Positions 7,544-58,239 of a DNA stretch of 64,000 nucleotides are shown piece by piece. The stretch covers positions 16,584,760 through 16,648,759 of the forward strand of contig OZ005689.1 of assembly GCA_963930775.1 (NCBI GenBank), in the 5' to 3' direction. Origin of the DNA: Cliona cf. orientalis (lineage: Eukaryota > Porifera > Demospongiae > Clionaida > Clionaidae). Every line of letters starts with the position of its first letter. Position 1 is the first letter of the stretch. The position numbers and the translations under genes were made by a program. The notes beneath the pieces were generated by a model, which saw nothing but the letters and a program-made list of their open reading frames with translations, did no database searches and was not told where the DNA came from.

Positions 7544-10500
7544 ATGGCTGCTGGAGGCACTATGTTGAGTGGTGCTACGCTCGAAAAGGCAGTGAAGGAG
7601 CTGAACGAGCCAGAATACGATGGACAACGACTGCAGCTAATCAGTGAGCTCCGTCGCCGTCTAAAGTTGTGGGAACCGAAAGAAAAACACGAGGAAGGGG
7701 TCACCCTGAGCAGACTGGACGATGATAAGTTCCTCCTTCGATTCTTACGCGCTAAAAAGTTCGATTTAAACAGAGCTGAACAGTTGTACATCAACTATCA
7801 CGTTTTTCGCCACAAGTACGCTGGTATACTAGGCGATATCAGCCCCCAAGCTGCCGATGGAGTGTTTGAAACTGGGATCGTGACCGTACTACCGCAGAGG
7901 ACCAAGGATGGGTGCCGTGTCGTAGTGCTGAGACCGTGCAAGTGGGACGTGGAGATTATGCCTCCTGGGCAGATCATGAAGACAGCTTTAGTTGTGTTGG
8001 ACAAGCTGTTGGAGGAAGAGGAGACACAGGTGCACGGGGTGACATTGTTTGAAAACCTTGATGGATTCTCCCTAACTCAAGCTATCCACTTGGCAAGGAG
8101 CGATCATATTAGGAAAGGGCTGGTCATGGAACTGCTACAGGTATGTGAGAGTGGTGCCAGGAAGGATGAATGCTAGGGTTTTCATTTTGAGTTAGTGACA
8201 CACGACTTGCGATAACTTTGTTCCCAGACCCTTCAAGAGGAGGAGGAGAAAGGACCTGGTACACATTGCATGCACATACACCGGGAGACCCCAGAAAAAT
8301 GCGGGATAATCGGATACTGTCGTATACTCTCCATTTATCGTCCATAGAACTCTACGTCATGCAGAACCCTTGAACGATCACTATGGTAACATGACCGGTC
8401 ACTATGGAGACCTCCGTGCATGCGTGTGCAGTGTGTACCAGGCCCTTTCTCCTCTTGAAGGGCCTGGGAACAAGGCTATATAGTCTTGCAAGTACTATTA
8501 TAGTTTAGGGAAGTGGTAAAGGGTCAACAATTTCAATGTTCTATTGTGAAGTTTAGTGGGTGGGCTTATCTCAGGGATACTTTCCTATAAAGCCATGACT
8601 TGTATTTATTTGTTTCCCGTCTTCTGATTTGTCAGGGTATTATTATACCATATTATACAATGAAAAATATTTTTCAGTGCAACATTTTCCTTATATAATC
8701 TGTGCATGACCTTACCTGGACAGCATATAAGATGTGCTGTGTTACAAGTTCAGAAGGCTCACTATTGGTCATATGCACGGACAAGGGTGACCAAAGAGAC
8801 GCATTCTTGAATGACGCAAAGTGCTGCATGTTTTGCTCAGCAGGCCACCGAGCCTCAAGCGAAGCAAGAGGCAAGGTCTCTTCCTTGTCATGCCTGTTGA
8901 TAGTCTAGTGGTAGATTGTATCAACAGTAGGTACGGTGTGCATGTGCAGATGAATGTAGCACGAACTTTGAATCTATTATCGTGTAGACCTGTTACCTCT
9001 AGGATTGAATTCAAATAGGGTGGTTGAATGTTAACATTACTATCATTGAATATTATTATGGGATATTACATTGGCCATGAAGAGGGAATGATTTGATGTT
9101 GCAGGCTTACTTTTGCAATGTGCACTTGGATAGTCACTGTGTATGCACATGTATGTGTACATGTACATGTGCTGTGTACACCACATTTCAACCACTAGTA
9201 GTGTGTCTCTGAGCTGATTGTGGGAAGCCAAAGATACCCACAACACAGACTTGGGAGCTACTACTGTACTGCAAACCACTGTTGCAGCTGTCAGCATTTT
9301 TGCAAATCAGCCACTCACAAACAGTGTGGGGCGCCCCTTTTCAAGTATGGTAGCGGAAACACTGCACAACCCTTGATGCAACCCAACAGGCTCAGCAGCT
9401 GCTTCGTAAGAAGTGTGCAATGGTGACATTCTCACTCTGCTCAAACATTGACGCATATGCAGCTCCTCCATGCATGTGTATCCATGCATAGAATAATGTA
9501 GTATGTACATGCATAGGATACCTGTTAATTTTTTGCGGGTACTAATGTTTGATATCTCAACAGATTTAATTTAGCACAAAATGCATAAATTTCGTATTGT
9601 AGGAATACAGATACCCCAATGAGTGGCCTTTCTATCTATTATGGCCACTCATCTTATAGCCATAATGGCAATCATTAGTAATAATCGTTAATAATTATTT
9701 CCCATCCCACTACTTTGGTGCCCGCATCCTCACTTATTATTGGCAGTTTCATTTGGGGGTGTGGTCAGATTCTGTGCATGCAAAGTAGTGCTCAAAGTTA
9801 CTGAATTGTAATAGCAGCAGAATAATAACAACAACTAGAGCTCTCTCGAGCACAAAACCCTCGGCGTGCTGCATGGCATTAGCTACATGCTTCAACAGTT
9901 GCATGCAGAAAAGGGGGCAGCTAAAGAAAGGGCTGGGGCCAGGGCGAGACAGGGATGAGGCTAATGTTACTTGCACAGCTGTGTTATTCAAGATGGTTCA
10001 ACAGCTCATATAGCAGCAACAATTCCCTAGCGTGTTGGAACTCCACACTGTGGTGTTTACGTCAATTCAACCTTCCTCACTGTAGTCTAATCTCCAATTC
10101 TTGGGGACTTAGCTAGCTACATCTTAAATAGAAGGACTATGATACAAAGCTGCTTGGCACAAGCCTGACTGAAGTACACTGAGAAATATTGCATGTCCAA
10201 TATTATCGCACATTGAACTCACTTGGTTTCAAACACTAATTCCATGCATGCATACAAGCCAGAGAGTCAAAGGGTACCACAAGAATACAGGCAGCTAAGC
10301 CACTTAGAATCGAAAAGAAGCCACGATCGTCAAAAGCTCGCTGGTGGACTGAGGGGCGGGATTGATGCAACCGGACATATGCGCATGCGCTGAGGGTTAT
10401 AGACGTACATACCGTATATAGTGCGCAACCTATTTATACGTTAAGTCATGCAATCGCTAGCTCGAGCAAAGTCAAGAAGCTTAGAATCGGCAAATGACGC

Positions 10501-34611: not shown

Positions 34612-35591
34612 ATGAACCTTTGCAACCAGGTGTGGCACAACTACATCGTACTGCAGTCGGACATTACTGCCATTTCGACATGGGTGGCTGGCAACCACCT
34701 TCAACTTAACTCCAACAAATGCTGCTTCATGTTAATATCTCGTAAGCGTTTTCGTTCTATCCCACCATCAACTCTCTATATCGATTCGAACACTGCTCTA
34801 ATACAAGTTAAGTCTGTCAAGTATCTGGGTATCCAACTAACTTGTGATCTGTCGTGGTCATCTCATATCACCACCATCTGCTCAAAAGCTCGCAGACTCA
34901 TAGGTCTCTTGTATCGCCAGTTTCATCTCTGTGCGCCTGAAACTGCACTCAGACTGTACAAGACTTTTATTCGACCTCACCTCGAGTACGCGTCTGTCGT
35001 ATGGGACCCATACCTTGCCAAGGACATCCAGTCTCTCGAACAAACATAAAAATTTGCTCTGCACGTGTACTTCAGAGATTGGTCCTGCCCTTACCAAGAG
35101 CTATTAGTTCAAGCAGAAACCCCATCACTTGCTGAGCGTCACGAACGAGCAAAACTTTGCCATCTCTACAAAATCGTACATGGTTTGACAGATTGCCAGT
35201 CAGCTCCTGTCCAAGTCAAATCACCTGCCTACAACACTAGGCAGGTCACCGACTTCACACTAGAGAATATCAGAGCAAATACTTCTCAGTTTCTGTACTC
35301 TTTCTTTCCTCACTCCATCTCTTAATGGAATTCTCAATCTATAAATACTCAAACTGCCCTGTCATTTTACACATTTAAACAGTTGTTATAACCCAACTTA
35401 CCATTAATTTATGTTATTAATATAATTTTATTTACCTTACTAGTTATTTGTATGGTGTTATGCCAGTATTAGCCTTAGCTATTCATGTACACCACTGATG
35501 TATATTTGTCAAGCATCAGAAAATATTCATGATAGCTAGACAAAAAAAAATTAAACACTAAATAGTTACACACTAAGTAAAAAAAAAAAAG
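34612..35591 (+). mobile_element. 5'-truncated LINE (CR1/L2/Jockey-like reverse transcriptase end)
   Basis: 34612-35046 encodes the C-terminal third of a non-LTR reverse transcriptase: DITAISTWVAGNHLQLNSNK, VKYLGIQLTCDLSWSSHI, LRLYKTFIRPHLEYASVVWD. An in-frame stop after QSLEQT is followed by FALHV and the usual C-terminal domain (to about 35325). The YADD catalytic box would lie upstream and is missing. A poly(A) stretch at 35579-35591 is the likely 3' end. A dead insertion, typical of target-primed integration that stopped early. Confidence 0.8.
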
Positions 35592-36189: not shown

Positions 36190-38006
36190 TCTGCCATCGT
36201 AATGAGTCGCGAGGCATGTTGACGTACTGCGTAGGGTGGCGTGGCTACTATTTCGTTCAGCACTTCACACCTAGATCATACTTGTAACAAAATTAGTATA
36301 GAACCCCTACAACTTTGTATCCTCGGTTTAGAACTCTTGCTGCGCTCGGGATTCCTACATAGAGCCCTTTGGTCTTCTAAACCTATAGCTTGAAGCATCC
36401 ATGGAAAGTGCAGTCTAGCAGTGTGGTTCAGTACACAACTCACAGTAAGCAACATCGCGCGTGCGCGTTTGCGATGCAATAACAGGTGTTTTTGAAGTTA
36501 AACGACGTTCTGACAACAGTTCTCCTACCACTTACTTCCATTGAGTAGAAAAGTTCATGGTATATAGAGCACACAAATGTCTCTTCACCACCTTTTGATT
36601 CTTTGATTATGGACTGATGAACCTGCTATGTGGCCTCGCCCCAAACCCTGATGTGATATCATGAATTGATAAACTAAACACCTTTATCTGATCGAACTCG
36701 GCTGGGTACTCTGTACTCTTCTGTAGCTGCCTGATTTGTATACTGTTGTTAGTTGAGCCAGATAAACAAGTGATCCTGCGAGAAACCCCATCTATTCCAC
36801 TGTGTACAACCACACGCCAACGAATGAGACTATGGTGTCCATCCTCTTTTTTGCAGAATACGTACGTCTGGAAATAATTCGGTACCATCTCACGAGTCTT
36901 CTTAAGAGATCAGTTCTAGACGCAAACGAACCGAAATACCCTTGCCTCGTAGATGTCCTAGAATCAACTGCTGACCACGATTGGGACGGTCAGATTGACC
37001 TATTCAATACGTTGTTGCTCGGGCCTGTCATGATTAAGTAATTAATTTTTTTCCCCGACGGTCAGATTGACAGTGCTGTCTAGTTTACCATCACTGATAT
37101 CACTATTTATACCAGCATCTTTATCTCGCCTCCAAATGGTAGATCGGCTGACTTGCAATGCGCCGCGTATCCACAACTTCTTAACAGTTCAACTGCATCA
37201 ACATTAACTATCAGTTTTGGCCTATATACCACGTGCACTGGAATAATCTTGCATACAAGGATACAGTGGAACTGGAGGAACAGGAAGGTGTTGGGATAGA
37301 TCTCGATGCATTAGGGTATACTCTGTTATAAAGGAGCTTCCAGATAGTACCTGCATGCATTCCACAATGACTAGCATCGTCTCAACTTGGTGACTCAGTT
37401 CAATGGGTGCCATAGATTGATAAGCTGAATATTATCATTGAACCTGTATGAGAAATTCTTGTCTAGATTCTAATTAATGTTAAAATGTATAGTATCTCAT
37501 CTGGCGATGATGATTCAGACAGCTGGCTTCGTGATGAAGGGAGAAGGTCAAAGGTCACAACGTAGTGGGTGGAGCCACAGGGTTACTTGCGCGCTTGATA
37601 TTATATTAGTACTCAGGTTGATCCGATCTGATAATCGCAATCGAATGGGTAAGCTTATAAGGTACGTACGGGCGCGGGTTCCCTGAATTTGCGCGGGATG
37701 TACTAAGATTTATTTTTAATGTTTACGTAATAAGTTTTACGTTTGAGCCCTACCGGCCACCATACAGTTCAGGTGGCCGATCCGATCCGATTATTAATCG
37801 CGATTGAATTTGATTTCATGGCCATGACCGATTCAATTATAACCATGTCTTATTACAGTATGGAAATTCTAATATTGGAAATGTCTGACAAATTATTGCA
37901 TTCTATCTTAATTTCATCAATAGTGTTGACAATAATAGATTATTTGTATATCACATGACGAACATAATTATAAGTTTGAATTTATTCATAATTTACTAAA
38001 GAATTA
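36190..38006. other. Intergenic stretch with repeat debris
   Basis: No gene recognised. It holds the partial MITE copy at about 36992-37062 and a short repeat related to CTCTATGTAGAATCCCGA (about 36344-36366, also 18153-18170 and 57485-57500). Two TCGATCCGATC-like blocks around 37619-37800 also recur. Confidence 0.45.
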
Positions 38007-39379
38007 GGGCAAGTGGATTTAGCGGAAACGGACGAAAACGGAAACGAAAACGAACGCGAAAACGAACACGGAAACGAAAACGAAAAAGGAAATGGTCGTC
38101 AAGAAGGTTACAAAATAATGTGGTATAGGTCGACGACCTTGTCAGCTTTATTAGTCCAGAGACTTGTCACAGGCTGCTCATTCGAGCTATATAATATCGT
38201 GGGCTAACATACGCTGAAAATTTGCCTGTCTGGAGTCTGGCAGGACCTTTCTGATCTTTGCATTTAGCCCGGCACAGGTAGCTAGCTTATGTAAATGCTT
38301 TCCAATATTGGGCTGAAAAAGTATGACTTGGCTATGCAGCTATCCTAAAACGGGGCCGTGTGATGTGGAGCACTTGGAGTCTCACATGCACGTTTGCCAA
38401 TCAGTACACTTTTTACCCTAGTCTCGCATTCCATTATCACCCCTATTTGCTAAACAGCACATGTAGTACTGCATGATCAGCTATATAATATTACAGAACC
38501 TTGACCCGATACATAAGATATAATATTATATTTGACCTATCTGGTAGTTCTCTACTGATCTATGCTACATGTATTTAGTTGAAGGTATCTACAAACTCTG
38601 GCCCTGGCCCTGATGACTGTAGGCCAGCCTGAGCCTCATCCCCAGGCCCTATATAGGCTCAGCTTAAAGCTAGGTAGTGGCCAATGACACCAGAGGCACC
38701 AACGACACCAGGAACACCAGGGGCACCGAATGGCACCAGAGACACCAAGGGCACCAATGACACCAGAGACATCAAGGGCACCTAAGGAACCAACAACAAT
38801 AGCTATATATTATTAACTACATAATTTTATGTGTGTAAATGCTGACTTTCCATATTTATGAACTACCAGTAACAACCCTAATTACAATAATTTGCATTAA
38901 ATTTTCAGTTTCAAGATACAACTTACATGAGTTCACTACCAGCATGTTACTATAGTACTTACCCACCCCTGGCTTATCAATTAATATGATTATTAAACAT
39001 CTGACAAATTATATAGACATTCAATTCACTGTCAGATAGCTACCAAATGCAAAGACCAGAAAGGTCCTGCCTAGCCTCGTACCCAGGCCCTTCTTGAAAG
39101 GCCTGGGAACGAGGCTAGGTCCTGCCAGACTCCAGACAGGCAAACTTTCAGCATATGTTGGCCCACGATATAATTTATGTAGCTAGCATGAGCAGCCTGC
39201 CTTGAGCCTGTGACAAGTCTCTGAATGCACCACACTATCTTGCATAATAAAGTAGGCTTACAAGATCGTCGACCTATACCACATTTGGAACCTTCTTGAC
39301 GACCATTTCCTTTTTCGTTTTCGTTTCCGCGTTCGTTTTCGTTTCCGTTTTCGTCCGTTTCCGCTAAATCCACTTGCCC
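38007..39379. mobile_element. Foldback Mutator-like element, 9-bp target duplication
   Basis: 1373 bp flanked by perfect AAAGAATTA repeats (37998-38006 and 39380-39388). The ends start GGGCAAGTGGATTTAGCGG. Inverted arms are about 280-330 bp, each containing a GAAAACGAAACG-type tandem array (38022-38095; mirrored 39302-39360). The centre has a GGCACCAA/GACACCAG minisatellite (about 38690-38790). Nine-base duplications and long arms point to the Mutator superfamily. No transposase, hence non-autonomous. Confidence 0.8.
39072..39117. mobile_element. 46-bp hairpin element with perfect 9-bp duplication
   Basis: TAGCCTCGTACCCAGGCC pairs with GGCCTGGGAACGAGGCTA across a 10-base loop. Flanked by GGTCCTGCC (39063-39071 and 39118-39126). 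Inserted in the right arm of the Mutator-like element; the left arm has the uninterrupted site once (GGCAGGACC near 38239-38247). Confidence 0.9.
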
Positions 39380-39486
39380 AAAGAATTACAAGGAAACTGG
39401 GGATTGCTATATAGTGAAGTGTTGATCAAGATCCAACGGGAAAAATGTCGGCTTCGTTGTTACTGAGTTCCTTAAAAAAGAATGTA

Positions 39487-58178: not shown

Positions 58179-58239
58179 TAGCCTCGTCTCCAGGCTCCCT
58201 GATGTGTTGAAAAGATTGGGAAGCCTGGGGATGAGGCTA
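58179..58239. mobile_element. 61-bp hairpin element, TAGCCTCG family
   Basis: TAGCCTCGTCTCCAGGCT pairs with AGCCTGGGGATGAGGCTA. Flanks GAATCAATC / GAATACATG match at only 6 of 9. A more diverged relative lies at 58037-58089. Confidence 0.6.

What the first reader, a model, noticed from the sequence alone, without database searches (positions are those of the whole stretch)
39063..39126. A 46-bp hairpin behaves as a complete mobile element, with its empty site preserved nearby
TAGCCTCG...CGAGGCTA (39072-39117) is flanked by perfect 9-bp repeats GGTCCTGCC and sits inside the right arm of a foldback transposon. The left arm of the same transposon (about 38235-38260) has the uninterrupted site with one copy of that 9-mer. 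This is internal proof of insertion with target duplication. At 46 bp it would be among the smallest DNA transposons, little more than two terminal repeats.
Basis: seen in the sequence. Interest (0 to 1): 0.82.

Follow-up and report, generated by a model that had tools for sequence, protein, structure and literature searches.

The report
Fused ends of a hairpin-tipped transposon
The 46-base hairpin is a real insertion, but it looks like the two fused tips left behind when the middle of a larger DNA transposon was lost, rather than a tiny transposon that moves by itself.

Summary
A 46-bp hairpin (39072-39117) with exact 9-bp repeats GGTCCTGCC interrupts one arm of a foldback element; the other arm, and arms of some other copies, lack it. 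In a sample of 63 independent hairpins of 34-123 bp, 45 have flanks matching at 7-9 of 9 bases (mismatched flank pairs 0.1%) and two more have exact 10-bp repeats.

The same ends bound elements of about 250-650 bp and 6-9 kb. Three large ones have exact 9-bp repeats and DUF6589; the one read also has a helicase. That fits AcademH, reported to make 9-10 bp duplications (PMC10045372 passage). 35 of 71 distinct hairpins are tiled by two ends of sampled longer relatives (shuffled centres 2.2%). Hairpins are mostly private: 64 distinct sequences in 66 insertions. The window's hairpin has 11 exact copies, all inside the same foldback arm, and one other site within 3 mismatches.

Best reading: fused ends left by internal deletion of a longer AcademH-type element, copied as a passenger. 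Self-mobility of 46 bp is not shown, nor excluded.

The parts
39072..39117 (.). 46-bp hairpin: two ends TAGCCTCGT(A/T)CCCAGGCC fused tail to tail
   Evidence: covered by a 22-base and a 28-base end of two different sampled longer relatives, overlapping by 4 bases
39063..39071 (.). target site duplication, copy 1, GGTCCTGCC
39118..39126 (.). target site duplication, copy 2, GGTCCTGCC
38239..38247 (-). uninterrupted (empty) counterpart of the site in the left arm, one copy of the 9-mer
38007..39379 (.). foldback element (ends GGGCAAGTGG...) that hosts the hairpin in its right arm
   Evidence: arms 226 of 238 identical where aligned without gaps
37998..38006 (.). 9-bp target duplication AAAGAATTA of the foldback element, left copy
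39380..39388 (.). 9-bp target duplication AAAGAATTA of the foldback element, right copy
58179..58239 (.). second hairpin of the family in the window, 61 bp; flanks GAATCAATC / GAATACATG match at 6 of 9

Best explanation
The hairpin is an end-fusion remnant of an AcademH-type DNA transposon. A longer element whose ends begin TAGYCTCGTNCCCAG and hold an inner palindrome inserted into the arm of a foldback element and duplicated 9 bp (shown: the repeats and the empty counterparts; inferred: that the inserted element was longer). Its interior was then lost, leaving about 22 bases of one end joined to about 28 of the other through a few shared bases (inferred from tiling). The likeliest route is abortive gap repair after excision, or slippage across the palindromic ends: both ends read TAGCC... 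inward and each carries an inner palindrome, so two short repair tracts can pair and close into a hairpin (inferred). The foldback element then copied the remnant as a passenger (shown: the same hairpin at the same place in 12 listed arms, 11 of them with the hairpin unchanged).
For: Target duplication: 45 of 63 sampled insertions at 7-9 of 9, control 0.1%. Parent elements: C1:6148885-6155157 (6,273 bp, duplication GCTACATGC, helicase PF00270 E 9.6e-10, DUF6589 PF20231 E 9.1e-33); C18:7524697-7530842 (ATAGCAACA) and C8:4840854-4849773 (CCATGTGCC), each spanning DUF6589 matches. Private junctions: three hairpins made of the large element's end have arms of 52/52, 47/63 and 60/52, each with its own exact 9-bp duplication. 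Tiling: 35 of 71 distinct hairpins are covered by one sampled end plus another, shuffled-centre control 2.2%. Few repeats of a sequence: 64 distinct in 66 insertions; the two shared cores occur exactly at 2 and 3 places genome-wide; the window's hairpin within 3 mismatches has 11 foldback copies and one other site, which has its own 10-bp duplication. By contrast the interior of a 638-bp relative matched at 95-100% identity at each of the 40 best of 116 candidates (only the interior was compared). In the end pairs listed (26 facing pairs, counted by hand in the first 100 of 955 places), long forms cluster at 306-354 bp (10) and 632-648 bp (7), while the five short ones are 49, 50, 58, 60 and 64 bp.
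Against: No site was seen in both the long and the short state; the 12 filled foldback arms all have the short form. 36 of 71 hairpins were not tiled, perhaps because only 10 long elements were sampled, and the two ends that tile a hairpin may come from different long elements. Two sequences recur at sites with different exact duplications, and one search lists three or four matches (85-96%) to another 46-bp hairpin without its host repeat, places only; both are what movement of hairpins would give. Three of six fused-end copies of the large element lack an exact duplication: 8, 5 and 0 of 9. Placement in AcademH rests on one passage and recall, not on a sequence comparison.
Confidence: 0.68

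Rival explanations
1. The small hairpins themselves transpose, moved in trans by the AcademH-type transposase and helicase; differences in their centres arise afterwards or at each move.
For: Exact 9-bp duplications around elements as small as 34 bp (L018, GTGTAAATT); identical 54-bp and 58-bp hairpins each at two sites with different exact duplications; a 46-bp hairpin 3 mismatches from the window's, with its own 10-bp duplication (L093).
Against: Nearly every sampled sequence is private and the shared ones are few genome-wide; the window's hairpin is unchanged in 11 of 12 foldback copies, so centres are not hypervariable once in place; 34-60 bp leaves little room to bring two ends together in a transposase complex (general knowledge, not tested).
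Confidence: 0.2
2. A Mutator-like (MULE) element is the source: 9-bp duplications and foldback relatives are known in that superfamily (recalled).
For: 58 matches to the MULE domain in the genome; 9-bp duplications.
Against: In six of the 58 MULE loci (about 3.3 kb each) no terminal repeat with 9-bp duplication was found, and the only family hits, in L051 and L052, are a broken hairpin beside a MULE-like frame; repeats further out would have been missed. The ends do bound DUF6589 elements.
Confidence: 0.06
3. A palindrome artefact or recombination product with chance flanking repeats, not an insertion.
For: Hairpins can go with rearrangements, as in L033, where an inverted copy of the flank sits between a half and a whole hairpin.
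Against: Flank matches far above control; an empty counterpart with all 105 aligned bases but one identical, read in full.
Confidence: 0.01

Closest known systems
AcademH lineage of Academ DNA transposons
   Same: 9-bp (28 of 63) and sometimes 10-bp (2 of 63) duplications and a helicase in the large element; AcademH is said to make 9 or 10 bp duplications and to differ from AcademX by helicase against nuclease (PMC10045372, passage seen).
   Different: The defining paper (Kojima 2020) is not held, so ends and transposase were not compared; in L059 and L077-L079 helicase and DUF6589 frames lie on opposite strands.
Ds-type internal-deletion derivatives formed by abortive gap repair
   Same: Ends and target duplication kept, interior lost, different junction in each copy; the model is applied to PIF/Harbinger elements of Medicago in PMC2213677 (passages seen).
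   Different: Here the loss runs down to about 17-63 bases per end and yields hairpins, since the ends are inverted repeats with inner palindromes.
MITEs
   Same: Non-coding, inverted ends, target duplication; the 306-354 and 632-648 bp relatives look like ordinary MITEs.
   Different: The sampled hairpins do not form uniform high-copy families.

Membership tests
AcademH | 9- or 10-bp target duplication | tested here: met
   28 exact 9-bp and 2 exact 10-bp of 63 hairpins; three large elements exact 9-bp; a 387-bp relative exact 10-bp; expectation from a passage of PMC10045372
AcademH | encodes a helicase | tested here: met
   PF00270 over its cut-off in L059; PF00271 and RecQ_Zn_bind frames beside DUF6589 in L077-L079, whose ends were not seen
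AcademH | Academ transposase | not testable with these tools
   DUF6589 is the other conserved domain found; no Academ reference sequence on hand; PDB sequence search gave nothing significant
AcademH | terminal sequence of known AcademH elements | not testable with these tools
   paper not held
MITE (small hairpins as a family that spreads) | many near-identical copies at unrelated sites | tested here: not met
   64 distinct of 66; 57 groups at up to 3 mismatches; window hairpin: one other site outside the foldback
MITE (small hairpins as a family that spreads) | inverted ends and target duplication | tested here: met
Internal-deletion derivative (Ds type) | both ends derive from a longer element with the interior lost | tested here: met
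   35 of 71 tiled, control 2.2%, window hairpin among them; fused ends of the large element
Internal-deletion derivative (Ds type) | long form seen at the same site | tested here: inconclusive
   none among 12 filled foldback arms; no second individual available
Mutator-like (MULE) | ends flank a MULE transposase | tested here: inconclusive
   not seen in six of 58 MULE loci, each only about 3.3 kb

The most novel reading that the evidence does not exclude
Bare fused ends of 34-60 bp are still substrates: an AcademH-type transposase with its helicase moves them as extruded hairpins, in which the two ends already lie side by side. That would be among the smallest mobile DNA units known and a hairpin route to 9-bp duplications.
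Probability: 0.15. Interest if true: 0.78.

Novelty: new variant of a known kind. Interest (0 to 1): 0.42.

Why it matters
If right, it shows how a transposon with palindrome-bearing ends can shrink to two fused tips while keeping its target duplication, a DNA-transposon counterpart of a solo LTR. Such remnants can be mistaken for ultra-small transposons, and they mark past insertions of an AcademH-type family. It also ties DUF6589, a domain of unknown function, to elements with defined ends and target duplications.

Tried and rejected
MULE as parent: six of 58 loci showed no matching terminal repeats within about 3.3 kb. L057 (3,602 bp) and the end pair in L058 (3,909 bp apart) were examined as autonomous candidates: L057 has TAGTC ends and an 8 of 9 duplication but only short frames and one that looks like reverse transcriptase by eye (not searched); the two ends in L058 match at 2 of 9 and its right end belongs to an 89-bp hairpin. 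L019's 2.4-kb element is a TAGTC element with the foldback nested in it. A PDB sequence search with one DUF6589 stretch gave nothing significant. Paper searches on sponge MITEs and palindromes, Academ, abortive gap repair, smallest transposons and palindromic end fusions listed nothing that describes this family; titles and abstract starts only were seen, with passages from PMC10045372, PMC10799480, PMC10280926, PMC2213677 and PMC12628747. That says nothing of papers outside the library. The organism was not identified; a sponge was a guess of mine, untested.

Full report
What is there. The hairpin, its exact 9-bp flanking repeats and the empty left arm are as described. The foldback element spans 38007-39379 and has its own 9-bp duplication AAAGAATTA. 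The window lies in a 216.8-Mb assembly of 149 contigs; the species is not known to me.

The site in other copies of the foldback. A search with the filled right arm (171 bases) gave 70 matches from 40 scored candidates of 105; 12 places match across the hairpin, six of them identical over 171 bases and one over 160. Other places match on both sides but not across it. At C1:9509763-9509878 the two pieces (98% and 100%) overlap by 10 bases, as expected for an empty site (places only). At C8:3489820-3489936 the arm was read: all 105 aligned bases but one agree, the odd one being an extra base next to the 9-mer; it could be an old change or a trace of excision. In L019 the same hairpin sits at the same place with flanks GGCATGACC/GGCAGGACC while the opposite arm lacks it. 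So one insertion in an ancestor was later copied by the foldback element. The exact hairpin occurs 11 times in the genome, each inside one of the 12 filled arms; the twelfth (C4:4516478, L083) has changes; the only other site within 3 mismatches is C4:6187314, which is L093, with an exact 10-bp duplication of its own. A second host repeat carries another 46-bp hairpin in the same passenger fashion in many of its copies.

The family. The 18-base end TAGCCTCGTNCCCAGGCC occurs exactly 1072 + 1098 times, the reversed control 0; a sister end TAGTCTCGTGCCCAGCCYC 471 + 484 times, control 0. Of 63 sampled independent insertions, 28 have exact 9-bp repeats, 12 match at 8 and 5 at 7 of 9; 2 more have exact 10-bp repeats; mismatched pairs reach 7 in 0.1%. 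A slightly different sample, including six fused ends of the large element, gave 28, 12 and 5 of 66. The smallest is 34 bp with exact repeats GTGTAAATT.

Longer relatives. Similar ends bound elements of 252, 387, 470, 631 and 638 bp. L065, L067 and L075 have exact 9-bp duplications, L076 an exact 10-bp one, L066 none (4 of 9). In several of them each end contains an inner palindrome of the type CCAGGCC...GGCCTGG (by eye, ends printed). A 6,273-bp element (C1:6148885-6155157, duplication GCTACATGC) has helicase frames on one strand (PF00270 over its cut-off, PF00271 under it) and DUF6589 frames on the other. Searching with its first 315 bases found the left end at six further places, one of them matched over 285 bases; two, on C18 and C8, have the matching right end, DUF6589 matches between, and exact duplications ATAGCAACA and CCATGTGCC. 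DUF6589 matches 122 times in the genome, many frames holding stops, and the top three loci have RecQ-type helicase frames beside it.

From long to short. The search also hit pairs of the large element's ends facing each other with little or nothing between. Six were read: L104, L105 and L106 have exact 9-bp duplications, L108 matches at 8, L109 at 5 and L107 at 0 of 9. Their arms differ in length. Of 71 distinct hairpins, 35 are covered by one sampled long end plus another; with centres shuffled, 2.2% are. The window's hairpin is covered by 22 and 28 bases with 4 of overlap. Mismatches were tolerated and the two ends may come from different long elements, so the overlaps are not a clean measure of microhomology.

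Do the hairpins move? 66 independent insertions hold 64 distinct sequences; allowing three mismatches at equal length there are 57 groups, the largest of 3. The cores of the two shared sequences occur exactly at 2 places, and at 3 of which one is a doubled hairpin. This is what one expects if long forms spread and hairpins are made one at a time. It is not proof: no site was seen in both states, and the few recurring hairpins are open to the other reading.

Placement. 9- or 10-bp duplications together with a helicase match what a passage of PMC10045372 says of AcademH. The defining paper is cited there but not held, so this is a placement by two features; the transposase itself was not compared.

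Noticed in passing
window 38007-39379 and L019 4224-6005: The foldback element (ends GGGCAAGTGG, arms rich in ACGAAAACGG-like units) makes 9-bp duplications (AAAGAATTA; CCGCCGTCC in L019); its own transposase source was not sought.
   Followed up: partly
L019 3852-6273: Three-deep nesting: a TAGTCTCG element holds the foldback element, which holds the TAGCC hairpin.
   Followed up: yes
L033 150-253: Half a hairpin, an inverted copy of the right flank, then a whole hairpin: looks like template switching at the hairpin.
   Followed up: no
L011 4259-4355: A 97-bp doubled hairpin with exact 9-bp duplication.
   Followed up: no
L110 (C8:3489830-3489935): Empty right arm with one extra base beside the 9-mer; possible excision trace.
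   Followed up: partly
window 8435-8478: Looks like the right end of a longer relative (GTACCAGGCCC...GGGCCTGGGAACAAGGCTA); no matching left end was listed near it.
   Followed up: no
window 34612-35325: Open frames resembling part of a LINE-type reverse transcriptase (by eye, not searched).
   Followed up: no
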